From contig OX485808.1 in assembly GCA_950295325.1 (NCBI GenBank), positions 12,464,501 to 12,528,500 on the forward strand: a DNA stretch of 64,000 bases. The letters are read 5' to 3'. This DNA is from Polytrichum commune (lineage: Eukaryota; Streptophyta; Polytrichopsida; Polytrichales; Polytrichaceae). The notes below the pieces were generated by a model. It was not told where the DNA came from and did not search any database. It worked only from the letters and a program-made list of their open reading frames with translations. Positions 11,762 through 38,400 of this stretch are shown piece after piece; position 1 is the first letter of the stretch; each line of letters begins with the position of its first letter. The translations under genes and the position numbers were made by a program.

Positions 11762-13400
11762 TCACGACATTGGGGAGTCCACTGTGTCCGACTTGAAGTC
11801 ATTCAACTCAGAGCCAGGTGGATGATACAAATCTGAATGACCCCATAAGGCGGCAGCGACACCGTATACAACTAGTACAAAAACCCAAAGGCAGGGTATC
11901 AAGATTGAGAGTTGAAAGTGTGCCAATGCTTGACCTCGTGCTTCATATGGCTCAGCATCACAAACAATCTCATCATGATCGTCTGTACACCTGAATGGCA
12001 TGAGCGGGCCATAAAGTGTGAAGGCAATCATGTAAAACCAGGCCCCTTGCAGAGTGATGGCCATACCACTGAGGATATCCACAGCGAAACTTTCAGGATA
12101 TGCTGTAGCCAGAAGTGCACATAGGATGCACAAACCTATGAGCAGGACCAGAATCATGTGGTATCTGCCCTCCAGACCTTGGTGGTTTGTGGAATGAAAG
12201 TAGAATAGAAGAAACTCAGCTGTAAACGCCATGGCTGCCACTACAAAGAGTGAACCGTCTGGAAGTGGCAACAGCCTGTTCACAATAAGACCTTGGTTAA
12301 TTCCAACCCCACGTGCAATCATGAAGCAAATAATTCATCCTAAACAAATTTGGTGAGGAGAAACATGCAGACATTTATCAGGCCCTCTAAGCAGCAGGTA
12401 GCCTGTGTTCTTGTATATAACGAGCCGAACATGAGATTTGTCGTGACATGATACTAACCCTTCACAGAAACTATATGTACTCTTGAAAAATGTCACGTAT
12501 TTATGCATATCCTACCTGCATGGTCTAGAACTAGAATACACTTCATCGTCAAATCATTTCATCCTAAAAATTTGAAGAGCATTAAATTAGGTCTGCTAGT
12601 TCAGTTTACAAAGGACCTAGAGAACTGATTATAATTCGTGTCCGATTGGCTGTACAAGAATGCCAACAGCGCTAGAATGACAATCAGCCATTACTACTAT
12701 ATGATGTTACAGCTGAAGAATATGAATGCCGACGGTTATTTATGAAAAAAACATGAGTGCAACTAGAGCAATTCATGAATGATTTTCTAAAACCGGAAAA
12801 AAAGTGCACACAAAACACAGGTCCTACTCCCAAATAAGTCTCAAACACTAACCCCTGTGAGGACTAATTCGATTCAAGCCAGAACATTCTGTCGATTCAA
12901 ATTCTGCAAAGAATCGAGTCACATTCACAGGAATCCACAGTTTATGCATGTGCAGATAACGTATGCGGGCCTATAACAGACACATCCAACCCCACATACT
13001 CTTTTGGCCATTAGATGGGATCGCATATTAGGATCGCATATTGCCTCATGCGCTTAGCAGTTGTGAATCGTGAAGATTATCTATTCAAGTGTCAAAATCG
13101 GAGTGAGGTGTAAAAGTTATAAGAGGTCAAAGTGAGGATTCTTCTCTCTCTTTCAAAAATCACATAGACCGTTCCAAATGTGTTAACTACTCAACCTAGA
13201 AACCTAGAATGGTGTCCTTATATTCCAATCTCATCCAAGCATGTGCCTTCTTGGTGTCTGTTCTTACCTACAAGCCTTGCCATATAGCACTCAAATATAG
13301 GCGTCTGGATAAGACTAGTGTTCGATTGAGGCCTGCATATCTAATCGCAATAGAATGTGAATGTGTACAGAGCAATAGGCAAACCGTATGTACGTAGGAA

Positions 13401-31800: not shown

Positions 31801-34689
31801 ATGGTAAGCATCACAAAGCTCTAATTTCATGTATCGTCAACACTGATTTCACATTGATTCAATCACATCAAACTACATCGGCATTGAATAAATGCATACT
31901 AAACCTAGAGTTGCAATTTTAATCTCTTGTTACTATGTTTAATCGATGAAAGACCTAAAAGGGTGAATTATGAGTTGAATTAATTTTGAATGAATTATTA
32001 GCTTAATGTTGAGGTAGCATTGAGAAGATATGAAACCCTGAAAGGTATATGTCAACAGTAACTCAACATCAAACACCGGTCACTTGCATTTTGAGATGGG
32101 GTAATTCCTGCTTTCACTGGCATTTCTTATTATGTAGTTGCAGATGTAAAGATTTTCCGGCAGATGCAACAATGTTTAATTGCCTTAATGTCGCTGTTAT
32201 TAGAGGGATTAATGTTGTAACCAAGTTAACATTGGGTTTGGACTTGCTAAGGTCGACACTGAGCATTGGACAAATTTATAAACAAGTGTGACCTAGTAAG
32301 AATATGCATGGCATGGGATGACAGGTGAAGAAAAAGACAGCCCGACAGAAAGTTCGGGAGAAATCAACCAAAAATGAAACATCCACTAAGGTGATGTCCC
32401 CGCATACACTTTGTTGGAATATATTGTGCAGCCCAGAATTGTTTCGAGTAATTTCAGTGTGCCACAATTGCCCCTTTTCCCTGAAGCCCTGGTGTTGGTA
32501 TGGTTGCAGGGTGATGGGGACCCTATAGTACAAGATGGTACAACAAGGTGTGTCTCATCTTAACCAACAATTGATTTTGTAGCATTTCCTGGATAATTGT
32601 TCCAGAGGAATCCACTTTCGATTCTGTTAATTTGTGTTTATATCAATGTGATGAGTGCACTTTCTCTGTAGGCACACACATCCTTGAACAACAGTAAGGA
32701 AGATATGGGGAGGTTTAATATGAATTCTGTATGATGGTATGCTGTTGAATGAGAGAATTCTTCTGTTCTTCAATCACAGTTTTGTGTGTTTTAGACTGGC
32801 AATATGGGACCTTATCCTTTTTACATGTGGTTTTGCATCAGCCAATGGGATGGTGGAGAAGAAGGGGGGTCTAAGTCTGTGGTGCGTGCGAGTGTGAAGA
32901 GAAAAATGGATAAGCAGCTTCGCTTCCTGTCAAGTAAATCCTTTTGTGCATCTTTTTTCATTTTTCCCACAATTTTCTAGGGTGTGATCTCTTAGAGATT
33001 TTGGCTGCACTTGTATAGGAACTCTTGTAGGTTTGTACAGAAGTTCATGCATCAACAGGAGCCATTCCAAATTGTCCAGACATAATGTAACACGCATCTT
33101 GTGCTTTCCTCATGTTGTAAATTATTAACTGGTAAAGGAAGTCGTATTCTAAAAAGGGCATGTCATTGCTACAATCACTGGCATTCCTTAGTCTGAAGTG
33201 GAAGACAATTAACTACCTTAATAATGAAATCATCAGGATATTAATTTACTTCAATTGAATTTGGACTGCATAGTGCTTGATTGTATGTGTTACCTTTTTC
33301 TTTGCTGCAGAGTTGCAAGAGACACAACGGGTGCTATCTGCTAAAAAAACCATCTCGAAGGTCTATCCTTGACCACCTTTGGATTCCTTTCCAAATTTCT
33401 TACTTTTTGGGAAATCTTTTTGTTGGTGAGAGATGAACTGAATAAGCATATGAGTGGAATATATAGTTGTCAATTGCAATCTGAATCTGATATGGACTTT
33501 GCTAGACTCCTCACAATTGGCTATACACAATTTTAATTGATGAGTAGTACTGCCAGGGAGCACTTGCAGTTGTTTAATCTGAGCTCCAGAACATCAAAGG
33601 TTGTAGTAATGTTGCTATAGTTCCTGGATTGACATGTTTTGCAATTGGATAATTGCAGAAGAGAAGGAGATCTCAAACTGGCAAAACCCTCAATGATCTC
33701 TCATCTCTTGCAGAGTTTTTGCCTGCTCTTGGCACTCCAACAACTGCTGCTCCACCTACTAAAATCCTTCGAAGCAAAGCAAAGCAAAAAATTGTGTGAG
33801 TTTCTTGTTACCAGATTGATTTTTCCAGTTTGAACTGATTATAGGAGTTTGCATGAAACAGAGATGTATTTAGAACAATACTCAAACCTATCTCCGTGTG
33901 CAAAGAATTTCATAGATGTGTAAGACTGCAGTCAGCTGAATATGTCCTTGTTCCAGCATTTGTGAATTCGTTGGATCATATTTCCAATCAGATTAGTGAA
34001 GTGTAGGAGCTTAAGAAGAACTAGGCACCAAATTTTCTTAACCCTTAAAGGTCCAAGAAGCTCATTCTTGGCTTTAAGGTGTCATACGGAGGGGTTCAAG
34101 ATTAACTTTTGATATTTTAAAGTGAACATGTCAAAGGTGGCCCTATCTGCAATGAGCCCATTTATTGTATGTATTAATCCAATCAGAGCATACATATATG
34201 TAAATTGAATTGTAGGAAGATTTGAGCTTGGTTAAATGACCTAGACTCAAATACATACCATGTATATTTAATCACCATTGTCACATATGACTTTTATTTT
34301 CAGGCTGTGCTAAATATGGATTGAATATCATAGAGCAGATAAAATATGATTTTAATACTTGTTGGGAATTTGAATCATCACATATGTAAAGGGTAACCTG
34401 CCTTTCAGTGCCCACATGTATGTGGTCTGTAACAAAAACGGCGTTAATCCTTTCTTTTTGTGATTCTTCTTTGGCAATTGGTAACTGATATATCTATAAT
34501 GCTATTTGCAGTGTGAATGAGACTAAGCAGCTAGCAGCGGTCCTTGCCCATCCACAATTTCAGTCCAACCCATTTGCTGCCATTCAGCAGCACCTCATTG
34601 CCACTCTTCCTCCTCCAACTCCAGCACCATTAAGTAAACCTGCACCCAAAGCTGGTCAGAAGAAGAGACCAAATTCAAAGAAGGCATAG
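31801..34689 (+). CDS. SLX9: SLX9 / FAM207-like ribosome biogenesis protein
   Basis: Seven coding exons: 31801-31803 (the ATG alone), 32325-32390, 32510-32547, 32842-32933, 33311-33360, 33659-33795 and 34512-34689. All joins agree in phase and use GT-AG borders; the donor at 33361 (GTCTAT) is weak. The product has 187 residues: a basic amino terminus (MVKKKTARQKV), KRKMDKQLRFLSKLQETQ and AKKTISKKRR (about 55-86), NDLSSLAEFLPAL (95-107), and the family carboxy region NETKQLAAVLAHPQFQSNPFAAIQQHL (131-157). That order is typical of SLX9/FAM207 proteins, nucleolar or nuclear factors in 40S pre-ribosome maturation and export. A 5' UTR intron is likely (donor after 31381, acceptor before 31737). 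The initiator codon is the last three bases of its exon (ATG|GTAAGC). The gene converges on the RNA-repair gene downstream. Confidence 0.85.
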
Positions 34690-35402: not shown

Positions 35403-38400
35403 CTATGTCACCTTCTCGGTGTACACAACACCATTTTCTCTGATGATTCCTTTGTCCCAATGCTCATTCCCACTGAGGAAGTTTGCACGCACCACCTTGC
35501 CTCGATCCAATGTGTATGTCCTTTCCTCATCCTCAAATCGGACATAGACACCTTCAATAGGTCCATCACAGAAAGCCGAAGTTCGGGTCATGTATGACTT
35601 GAGCTCGCTCTCAGTAACACCCTCTGAGCTACTTTGGATAATTGGCACCTGATGGATAGTGGTCCCTTGCAACAGCCGTGAGACATGCTCCCTTGATGCA
35701 AACTTCTTTGTGACGCGGTCGTAGAAATCATATGCCAAGAATAAATCTGGCAATCTCTCATAGTGGATTGAGTGTGTTGCAACAACCCATTCCCCGAACA
35801 AGATGTATCTCTCAGGAAATTGTTCGTCCTGGTGCAAAATTGTATGCAAATCCTTTGAATGTCGGTCCAGCCAAAGGTGCAGTTGCCGGAACTGTGTGTG
35901 CGACTGGGATGTCACAGTGTGGCTTCTGTTCTGCACCTGAATGTTGCCATAGTAATCCAGAGTGATCCCCATATTTGCACCATCAATTTTCTCTTCAACC
36001 ACAACTATGCTACCCAATTGAGGTAAGACTTTGTTGGAGATGATGTCATCCACTGTCGCCCCACCAAGGTTAATGAGGTGTTGCGTTCGCGGAAATTTGT
36101 ACAGCTGAGGTATACCGCCGAGTAATTTGATCACTTCTCTCGAGGCTTCAAAAGATGGGATGGTGATCACAGCACCAAATCCTTCGTCTAACGTTGGAAT
36201 ACTCATATCTCGGTTCATCTGCTCTGTTGCATGAAACGATCGGCCAGCACGAAGAGTCGGATGGTCGATTCTTCGGTCGATTCGTTGCGTGCAGAGATTT
36301 TTTTCATAATCAAAGTACACTGCAACTGCTTTCTCCCCCACATCAGCCAACCCTAACCAAGTTTTCCTATCCTCCCTGGAAGGATTACAGCGGTCAAGAA
36401 TGATCATTTTCCCAGCTCTTCGCCTACCGATGGCAATCTCACATGTCGATCTTGATCCACACTCATCTTGCGAAACCACATCCACATCTCCACATCTCCG
36501 TTTCTGTAAAGCTGAGCTGAACCAGCTCTTTCCACTTCCAGGCAGACCAACGAGTAGGAGAAGTTCAGGGTTATCTGGAACACGTCCTTGAACTTCAAAC
36601 CTTAATCCTTGGGGTTCAGGTAATAGATTCGTCTTTTGCTTCCACCGATAGCTGATCCAATTCGCAACGAAAGCCTCCTGCACGGGAGTCTCAATTGATC
36701 CTGGCCGTATGGTACGCAACCATCTGATGACGGTTCCAGCATCACAACAAGGTTTAGGTTGCACGTCAGCTTTCGCATCCGGTTTTTGAAATCCATAGAG
36801 TGCAATGTAACATGCAAGCATGGTCCCGGCTCTCCCTTTCCCTCCTCCACAATGAACAAGCCAGCAAGCATCATCTGATTCCTCAGTAACAGCCTCGATG
36901 AAATAGTCCACCTCTTGAAACGTCGGTGCCTTGTAATTCGCCACCGGAATGAAAATGTTCTTGATCGATTTGTATGCAAACCACGAGGCTGGGAGTGGCT
37001 CTTCTTGTGTTAGGGTTAGAATTCGAGTAATGCCAAGCTCAGCAAGTGCATCCACATCCTTTTCGCATCGAGGTGTTGACATGCCTGCCAGGAAGTAAGG
37101 AACGATCCAAGAGAAGAATCGAGGCATTTCATGTTGCTTATACCATAACCGATCTCTACCTTGCGTCACAACTGTCTCCGGAGGCTCAAGTGGCAATAGA
37201 GTATGTCCAATTTGCCTGGCCTCTTCACACCAAGGTTGCACAAGAATCTCAACAAGCTCAGTAGGGATGGAATCTCTCTCCGCAGCCGACATCACTGGAC
37301 CGTAATGTGTCAATTTCACCAATTTGCGAAGCCTCCGGGTAACATATTCATGCAAAGAAGAATCAAGTCGAAGTGCATATGCATAAGCTAGGATTGCTAA
37401 CTTAGAGATTCCATCAGCGGCCGCTGCATCTCCCAGGCGGACGAAATGATTCGCGGATTCGGGGTGAGTAATTGCACTCGCAACAGTGAGAGGTAAAGTG
37501 AGGTCACTTCGAATTAAATGGAGATGGTGTAACACATGGTCTTGCTTCTCCGGTGAAAATTGAGGAAACTCCGTGACCAAACCCTTGGAATCCAAAAGGG
37601 AGGAAGCATTCTTGGGAACTTCGTGAACATCATCCTCTGTGAGTGTGATGTGGAAATCCTTCATAGGCAGGTTGTGTGATTTCCTCCAAATGTTACCTGC
37701 GGAGCATACAAACCAAACGAGAGCATTGTGACCCACTAATACAAGCAATAAGACCCAAAGGATAGAACATAAAACCCCCTTATAGTCATCACCGCAAGAG
37801 TACGAGGAGCAATACACAACTAAAGCATAACAAAACTTGGAGAACTACACATCCCCCTCCATAATCAAGAAATCCATAAAGACAATGCACCAAACAATCA
37901 TAAAATATTTCACATAGTCATCACCGCAGGGGCACGAGGAGCAATACGTAAACCAAGCATAACAGAACTTGAAGGGCTACACATCCCCTCCATAACCAAA
38001 TCAAGAAATCCATGAAGGCAATACACCAAATTAGCCATGAAATACCTCCCACACATTATACTCAACACAAAAAAACATTAGATACTAAACAAGAATACGT
38101 TATTTTCTTACCTGCGGACCAAATGCACACAATCCAGTAGGCTGCTGAACCCGACGAGAGATTGGCACTGCCGAGGCCGAGGAAGTACAAATGGTCAAGA
38201 GGAATTGCTGGAGGCTTCTCAATAACTTTGTGCATCCGAAGTGACCTAAACTCTTCCTTTGTGACCAGAGTGATGTGGTACGCCATGCCTGGACTTGAGC
38301 TCCGAAGATTCAAGGTCCTTCGAAATTGGGTGGCTTCGTCGTCGATGAGGGAGCCGAGCAATGCAAGCCCCCCTCTGAATCTTACAAGAGATGCCGCCAT
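35403..38400 (-). CDS. Multifunctional RNA repair protein: 2H phosphoesterase - phosphatase - kinase - RNA ligase
   Basis: Two exons, 38400-38112 and 37696-35403 (donor GCAG|GTAAGA, acceptor CGCAG|GTAAC, phase 1), encode 860 residues. Start: ATG at 38400, the first in frame, in strong context (AAGATGGC); a second well-placed ATG is residue 39. Domains in order: (1) two H-I-T-L motifs at 42-45 and 112-115, the paired H-x-T signature of 2H phosphoesterases, which open 2',3'-cyclic phosphates; the exon join completes this domain. (2) A helical linker, about 130-270. (3) A dual-specificity-phosphatase-like domain, 287-445, with HCGGGKGRAG at 378-387 (Cys379, Arg385). (4) A P-loop kinase, about 470-630, with GLPGSGKS at 480-487 and DRCNPSREDRKTW at 531-543. 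(5) An Rnl2-like ATP-dependent RNA ligase, about 636-845: motif I EKIDG (Lys666), FGEW 730-733, EGVYVR 811-816, KVVRAN 830-835. Together these could heal and seal broken RNA. The usual general-acid Asp of the phosphatase is Asn350. The first 38 residues are basic and could be an organelle-targeting peptide. Confidence 0.92.
37783..38046. repeat. 132-bp tandem duplication within the intron of the RNA-repair gene
   Basis: TAGTCATCACCGCA begins at 37783 and again at 37915. The two copies share ACGAGGAGCAATAC, AAGCATAAC, CTACACATCCCC and AATCAAGAAATCCAT with scattered differences. Together they make up most of the 415-nt intron. The intron borders also carry an 11-nt direct repeat, TCCGCAGGTAA (37693-37703 and 38108-38118). 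Confidence 0.85.

What the first reader, a model, noticed from the sequence alone, without database searches (positions are those of the whole stretch)
35403..38400. One-chain RNA repair protein with an unusual order: 2H phosphoesterase, phosphatase, kinase, Rnl2-like ligase
The spliced frame carries, in order, two HITL motifs, HCGGGKGRAG, GLPGSGKS and a full set of ligase motifs (EKIDG, FGEW, EGVYVR, KVVRAN). Families: 2H phosphoesterases act on 2',3'-cyclic phosphates, P-loop kinases of this kind phosphorylate 5'-OH RNA, and Rnl2-type ligases seal 3'-OH/5'-phosphate ends. The canonical plant tRNA ligase runs ligase-kinase-cyclic phosphodiesterase with a different ligase class. I infer an independent all-in-one heal-and-seal enzyme, possibly acting on damaged or endonuclease-cut RNA, with the phosphatase domain removing the leftover terminal phosphate. 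I do not recall a characterised plant protein with this layout.
Basis: partly seen in the sequence, partly recalled or inferred. Interest (0 to 1): 0.9.

Follow-up and report, generated by a model that had tools for sequence, protein, structure and literature searches.

The report
Plant four-domain RNA repair enzyme
This land-plant gene encodes one protein carrying the four activities expected to mend a cut RNA (open the damaged end, strip its phosphate, phosphorylate the other end, join them); it is real and intact-looking, but belongs to a kind of 'Swiss Army Knife' RNA repair protein that protein databases already name.

Summary
A two-exon minus-strand gene (38400-38112, 37696-35403) encodes 860 residues. 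Each exon alone carries part of one 2H domain (profile 19-98 and 100-124), so the join is right. Catalytic signatures of all four domains are present. The gene sits on a 44.7-Mb contig of a 408-Mb genome rich in GRAS genes (land plant or close kin), beside SLX9: not bacterial contamination. In the collections searched, the kinase groups with a Rhizopus kinase and phage-type phosphoesterase-kinase fusions; the ligase resembles plasmid and phage minimal ligases. Best reading: 2H opens the cyclic phosphate, the PTP domain removes the remaining phosphate, the 5'-OH is phosphorylated, ends are sealed without a leftover 2'-phosphate. No activity was shown. The kind is recognised: Pfam's two N-terminal models are named 'Swiss Army Knife'. 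Whether this exact plant layout is in print I could not check. The genome also has a Tpt1 exon, a second (Rnl5-like) ligase and an RtcB-like exon, so this is probably an additional repair route.

The parts
38112..38400 (-). exon 1: start codon, N-terminus and first part of the 2H phosphoesterase domain (YHITL at 38266-38280)
   Evidence: 2H-SAK profile positions 19-98 matched by exon 1 alone
37697..38111 (-). GT-AG intron, 415 nt, containing an imperfect direct repeat
35403..37696 (-). exon 2: rest of 2H domain, linker, phosphatase, kinase, ligase, stop
37623..37694 (-). end of the 2H-SAK domain with the second motif (FHITL 37641-37655)
   Evidence: profile positions 100-124 matched by the first part of exon 2 alone (21.6 bits, under the cut-off on its own)
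37125..37622 (-). linker, residues 122-287, no Pfam match; looks helical but the structure model is of very low confidence
36666..37124 (-). PTP-SAK phosphatase domain, residues 288-440, Cys-x5-Arg loop HCGGGKGRAG at 36825-36854
36186..36578 (-). P-loop polynucleotide-kinase-like domain, about residues 470-600 (bounds approximate), GLPGSGKS 36525-36548, QDECGSR 36450-36470, DRCN 36384-36395
35496..36005 (-). RNA_ligase (PF09414) domain, residues 661-830, motif I EEKIDGAN 35973-35996, III FGEW (LFGEW 35787-35801), IV EGVYVR 35538-35555, V KVVRAN 35481-35498 (running just past the Pfam match)
35406..35495 (-). C-terminal 30 residues after the motif V lysine; no appended C-terminal domain

Best explanation
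It is a nuclear-encoded plant 'Swiss Army Knife' RNA repair enzyme. On RNA cut so as to leave a 2',3'-cyclic phosphate and a 5'-OH, the 2H domain opens the ring (most likely to a 2'-phosphate), the PTP-type phosphatase removes the remaining phosphate to leave a 2',3'-diol, the P-loop kinase phosphorylates the 5'-OH using NTP, and the minimal nucleotidyltransferase ligase adenylates the 5'-phosphate and seals it to the 3'-OH. The product is a clean 3'-5' bond with no 2'-phosphate, so Tpt1 would not be needed. SHOWN: gene structure, domain order, presence of the catalytic signatures, genomic setting, relatives of kinase and ligase. INFERRED: every catalytic step, the order of steps, the regiochemistry of ring opening, and the physiological role (repair of RNA, perhaps tRNA, cut by endogenous or foreign ribonucleases).
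For: Four Pfam domains over cut-off in one chain; join supported by one domain split over two exons. Kinase: best solved matches over this stretch are 9d8a (Rhizopus azygosporus kinase) and 9drz, then chains named bifunctional polynucleotide phosphatase/kinase; NCBIfam gives PNK-3'Pase and bacter_Pnkp over the same stretch, far below their cut-offs; five-row group with these two solved kinases and two phosphoesterase-kinase fusions, support 100/98. Ligase: E-K-x-D-G-x-N (motif I), G-E (III), E-G (IV) and K-x-V-R (V) are invariant in 5 of 5 aligned ligases; a profile of them finds solved RNA ligases. Phosphatase: 195.1 bits to PTP-SAK with H-C-x5-R. Pathway logic from the review PMC3400036 (passages): yeast and plant 2H domains yield 2'-phosphate/3'-OH, while T4 Pnkp yields a 2',3'-diol that T4 Rnl1 joins; a phosphatase after a 2H domain would convert one into the other.
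Against: No activity, transcript or substrate evidence. No full-length relative was obtained, so no test of selection on the whole protein. The plant kinase is a long branch in its tree (1.78), so its exact place is unsure. The ligase lacks the extra domain of T4 Rnl2 or Rnl5, so it may join only special substrates. Sequence cannot tell whether the PTP domain acts on RNA; its nearest solved chains are dual-specificity protein phosphatases. The structure model is useless (mean pLDDT 37.4).
Confidence: 0.72

Rival explanations
1. It is the plant's tRNA-splicing ligase, replacing the canonical plant tRNA ligase.
For: It holds all activities needed for 5'-phosphate ligation; a search for the tRNA_lig_CPD family found nothing in the genome.
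Against: That search rang in none of 14 controls and is uninformative. A Tpt1 (PTS_2-RNA) exon is present (45.7 bits), as expected if a canonical 2'-phosphate-leaving ligase works here.
Confidence: 0.1
2. The phosphatase does not act on RNA ends but on a protein or a small molecule, and the chain makes 2'-phosphate junctions that Tpt1 later cleans, as canonical plant tRNA ligase does.
For: The closest solved phosphatases by phmmer are dual-specificity phosphatase 23 chains (1.2e-14); Tpt1 is present.
Against: A dedicated SAK subfamily of this phosphatase is defined by Pfam, and it sits next to end-processing domains in the same chain.
Confidence: 0.15
3. It is a degenerate or regulatory protein (RNA-end sensor) with one or more dead domains.
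For: Motif V reads K-V-V-R, not the K-x-K that I recall for T4 Rnl2; no activity known; long kinase branch.
Against: Signature residues of all four domains are present, and K-x-V-R is invariant in the five aligned plasmid, phage and window ligases.
Confidence: 0.08
4. Contaminant, or a very recent bacterial or phage gene in the assembly.
For: 2.3-kb exon with no intron; ligase 38% identical to a Tistrella plasmid ligase.
Against: Lies at 12.5 Mb of a 44.7-Mb contig, has a GT-AG intron inside a domain, neighbours SLX9; identities to the listed plasmid and phage records are 38.2% or less; no full-length prokaryotic or viral relative found in the searches made.
Confidence: 0.02

Closest known systems
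'Swiss Army Knife' (SAK) RNA repair proteins, Pfam PF22547 2H-SAK and PF22784 PTP-SAK
   Same: Both SAK domains present over cut-off, on one chain with a kinase and an RNA_ligase.
   Different: Member sequences and published domain orders could not be seen; whether a plant 2H-PTP-kinase-ligase is already in print was not checked (paper not held).
Canonical plant and fungal tRNA ligase (AtRNL, ScTRL1)
   Same: One chain with ligase, kinase and 2H cyclic phosphodiesterase functions (review passages).
   Different: Different ligase class and opposite order (ligase-kinase-CPD, partly recalled), no PTP phosphatase; leaves a 2'-phosphate.
T4 Pnkp plus T4 RNA ligases
   Same: Heals to diol and 5'-phosphate, then seals (review passages).
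   Different: Separate proteins; aspartate-based DxDxT phosphatase instead of 2H plus PTP.
Phage-type metallophosphoesterase-(putative ligase)-kinase fusions L025:3153-5459 and L006:4102-6465
   Same: Kinase of the same group with QDxxGSRxxC and DRCN; several end-processing domains on one chain.
   Different: Different phosphatase fold and order; their ligase part is weak in Pfam (17.4 bits against a cut-off of 27 in L006, no match in L025).
Plasmid and phage minimal RNA ligases (Tistrella, Aeromonas)
   Same: 38% and 35% identity and the same motifs.
   Different: Stand-alone proteins, in these two plasmids encoded after an AAA or DUF3696 gene and a hypothetical gene.

Membership tests
Swiss Army Knife RNA repair proteins | 2H-SAK domain with two HxT motifs | tested here: met
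   73.1 bits, cut-off 27; HITL twice
Swiss Army Knife RNA repair proteins | SAK phosphatase domain (PTP type) with C-x5-R | tested here: met
   195.1 bits, cut-off 27; HCGGGKGRAG
Swiss Army Knife RNA repair proteins | kinase and ligase in the same chain | tested here: met
   AAA_33 41.1 bits and RNA_ligase 104 bits
Swiss Army Knife RNA repair proteins | repair activity on cut RNA | not testable with these tools
   needs purified protein
Swiss Army Knife RNA repair proteins | domain order as in published members | not tested
   founding paper (recalled as Burroughs and Aravind 2016) not held
Rnl2 family ligase | PF09414 match and nucleotidyltransferase motifs I, III, IV, V | tested here: met
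   motif names are recalled
Rnl2 family ligase | C-terminal domain after motif V (recalled for T4 Rnl2) | tested here: not met
   chain ends 30 residues after the motif V lysine
Rnl5 (Deinococcus/Naegleria-type) ligase | N-terminal OB domain (recalled as defining) | tested here: not met
   no PHA02142 OB match in the protein at E 0.1, whereas the genome's other ligase has it
Canonical plant/fungal tRNA ligase | order ligase-kinase-CPD with another ligase class | tested here: not met
   order is 2H-PTP-kinase-ligase, ligase is PF09414
Bacterial Pnkp | metallophosphoesterase between kinase and ligase (order recalled) | tested here: not met
   no Metallophos match; bacter_Pnkp only 22.8 bits, cut-off 750

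The most novel reading that the evidence does not exclude
This plant has a self-contained RNA rejoining pathway that leaves no trace: a tyrosine-phosphatase-type domain, not Tpt1, removes the 2'-phosphate before sealing, so one protein repairs RNAs cut by its own or invaders' ribonucleases in parallel with the tRNA-splicing pathway. The gene was assembled from modules whose nearest kin found here lie in phages, plasmids and fungi, giving the plant a defence-type RNA repair kit.
Probability: 0.4. Interest if true: 0.62.

Novelty: new member of a known kind. Interest (0 to 1): 0.42.

Why it matters
A four-activity chain in a plant is a clean, testable enzyme: it predicts a 2'-phosphate-free RNA joining route in a lineage known for 2'-phosphate-leaving tRNA ligase. 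It could matter for recovery from ribotoxins, stress tRNA cleavage or viroid-like RNA circularisation, and as a one-pot RNA joining reagent. The general kind has been recognised, which limits the surprise.

Tried and rejected
Contamination and separate-gene readings were rejected (long contig, intron, SLX9 neighbour, one domain split across both exons). Full-length relatives: tblastn of the exon-2 protein gave 26 plasmid records (20 listed, all over the ligase part) and 19 phage records (17 over the ligase, one of these, H21, reaching back into the kinase; 2 over the phosphatase), none covering 80% of the query; used alone it found nothing in viral contigs. The kinase alignment gave 15 genome loci and 37 viral loci. 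By tblastn with the window's domains the 15 had no match but the kinase at E 0.01; the 37 had no 2H or PTP match at E 0.1, and one, L031, had a ligase match about 2.5 kb beyond its kinase. PF22547 was found in 1 of 386 genomes drawn from a cyanobacterium's phylum, a stand-alone secreted-looking 2H protein, in 0 of 297 from an acidobacterium's phylum and in 0 of 6 handled genomes or records; in all three searches none of the 14 controls rang. PADLOC: no match. PHROGs: RNA ligase families best. NCBIfam: four weak matches below cut-off, two over the kinase and two over the phosphatase. PDB searches with the ligase alone and the 2H domain alone found nothing of use. AlphaFold on exon 2 alone: mean pLDDT 37.4, not used for a fold search. 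Paper searches: searches listed no paper describing this layout among 11 of 12, 15 of 27 and 16 of 17 papers; two searches found no paper; others (20 of 25; 10 of 1,717; 10 of 47) listed neither the founding paper nor one on the solved kinases 9d8a and 9drz; (12 of 32) listed none on such a ligase in bryophytes; (15 of 1,147) did not identify the species. The founding paper and Pfam's member lists could not be read. No plant or fungal genome collection was available, so distribution in plants and fungi is untested. The canonical plant tRNA ligase could not be tested (uninformative). Whether the genome has another 2H-SAK exon, or a HAD-SAK gene, did not complete.

Full report
WHAT IS THERE. The minus strand carries a two-exon gene: exon 1 38400-38112, a GT-AG intron of 415 nt, exon 2 37696-35403 including the stop; 860 residues. 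Exon 2's open frame is 763 codons; in 300 first-order Markov resamplings of the same DNA the longest frame was 236.

THE DOMAINS. Pfam gives 2H-SAK (residues 22-121, 73.1 bits), PTP-SAK (288-440, 195.1), AAA_33 (best stretch 517-593, 41.1) and RNA_ligase (661-830, 104), each above its curated cut-off. The signatures are two HITL motifs, H-C-x5-R, GLPGSGKS, and ligase motifs I, III, IV and V (motif names recalled). Residues 122-287 match nothing in Pfam. The AlphaFold model without an alignment has mean pLDDT 37.4 and was not used.

THE KINASE. The best solved matches are 9d8a (named Rhizopus azygosporus kinase, E 1.4e-17) and 9drz (its record name gives no organism; that it is fungal is a guess); over the same stretch follow chains named bifunctional polynucleotide phosphatase/kinase (3.3e-5). 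From 52 loci fetched with a kinase alignment (15 genome; 37 viral), only L006 and L025 share QDxxGSRxxC and DRCN with the plant kinase and the two solved ones. In a tree of 43 rows (12 of 55 dropped because their first 60 residues were identical to another row's) the five form one group with support 100/98; the plant row is a long branch, so its place inside is unsure. Both loci encode a calcineurin-like phosphoesterase at the front and this kinase at the end. Between them I see an EK-x-N-G stretch that looks like a ligase motif I (read by eye), but Pfam's RNA_ligase reaches only 17.4 bits in L006 (cut-off 27) and nothing at E 0.01 in L025, so the ligase part is tentative. L006 is deposited as a Bacilli MAG but by eye its neighbouring frames resemble those of L025, a viral contig.

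THE LIGASE. The best plasmid ligases are 34-38% identical. In an alignment of five (window, three plasmid, one phage) E-K-x-D-G-x-N, G-E, E-G and K-x-V-R are invariant (one search shows the same five). A profile of these finds solved RNA ligases first (1.6e-5), among them Naegleria gruberi RNA ligase. The chain ends 30 residues after the motif V lysine, so it is a minimal ligase without the C-terminal domain I recall for T4 Rnl2 and without the OB domain found in the genome's other ligase.

THE SETTING. The window lies at 12.46-12.53 Mb of contig C6 (44.7 Mb) in a 407.8-Mb genome of 64 contigs. 70 GRAS matches (none in 14 control genomes) point to a land plant or close streptophyte; I guess a bryophyte from contig sizes, which is no test. 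The last SLX9 exon ends at about 34689 on the other strand. PTP-SAK rings three times in the genome: this gene at 199.6 bits and two partial matches at 29.5 and 29.1 bits, just over the cut-off. RNA_ligase occurs twice among the candidates scored: here and at C1:31328684, an Rnl5-like protein with a PHA02142 OB domain. A Tpt1 exon and an RtcB-like exon are also present. The tRNA_lig_CPD search was uninformative.

HOW IT PROBABLY WORKS. In the review PMC3400036 (passages read) yeast and plant 2H domains turn 2',3'-cyclic phosphates into 2'-phosphate/3'-OH ends, whereas T4 Pnkp makes 2',3'-diols that T4 ligase joins. A 2H domain followed by a phosphatase would produce the diol, the kinase the 5'-phosphate, and the ligase the bond. 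This would explain why a phosphatase is present here and not in canonical plant tRNA ligase. PMC9503650 (passages) describes the other known route, in which KptA-type enzymes and 2H domains act in RNA repair. All catalytic claims are inference.

IS IT NEW. The two N-terminal Pfam models carry the name Swiss Army Knife, and a table in PMC7765460 (passages) quotes the domain title 'HAD domain in Swiss Army Knife RNA repair proteins', so one-chain RNA repair proteins of this sort are an acknowledged kind. I recall that the name comes from Burroughs and Aravind 2016 (Nucleic Acids Research), which is not held; the papers listed by my searches include none on a plant member as far as titles and abstract starts show, and I read only passages of five papers: PMC8465782 (irrelevant), PMC9503650, PMC7765460, PMC3400036 and PMC4599027. 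[quoted passage not shown] I file the gene as a new member of a known kind; prokaryote and virus searches gave no full-length counterpart, so the layout looks eukaryotic, but no eukaryote collection could be searched.

Noticed in passing
L002:1465-2568 (own genome C1:31328684): Second RNA ligase gene of this plant: Rnl5-like, PHA02142 OB domain plus RNA_ligase (34.8 and 67.3 bits), open frame 367 aa.
   Followed up: partly
L067:1477-2001 minus (own genome C7:4602567): RtcB-like exon (profile 1-93, 53.9 bits), so this plant may keep another class of RNA ligase; rest of the gene not traced.
   Followed up: partly
L025:3153-5459 and L006:4102-6465: Phage-type fusions of calcineurin-like phosphoesterase and a DRCN-type kinase with a putative ligase between; L025 also has an Rnl5-like ligase gene at 1550-2665.
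   Followed up: partly
L006 (whole): Contig binned as 'Bacilli bacterium' MAG carries frames resembling those of the viral contig L025 (by eye); probably phage DNA.
   Followed up: no
L021:2224-4684 and L022:2062-4690: Plasmid RNA ligase genes lie directly after an AAA (Tistrella) or DUF3696 (Aeromonas) gene and a hypothetical gene: a three-gene set that may be a conflict system with its own RNA repair.
   Followed up: no
window 37782-38030: The gene's intron holds an imperfect tandem duplication (75 nt at 84% and 32 nt at 91%, spacing 132 and 136).
   Followed up: no
L063:1438-2082 minus: Stand-alone bacterial 2H-SAK-family protein with a signal-peptide-like start, in 1 of 386 genomes searched.
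   Followed up: partly
L031:7892-8353: RNA ligase match about 2.5 kb from a P-loop kinase in a viral contig: separate healing and sealing genes.
   Followed up: no
window 34512-34689 plus: Last exon of SLX9 (ribosome biogenesis, 32.5 bits) next to the repair gene, on the opposite strand.
   Followed up: yes
window 11768-12334 minus: DUF716 membrane protein exon, 133.8 bits.
   Followed up: no
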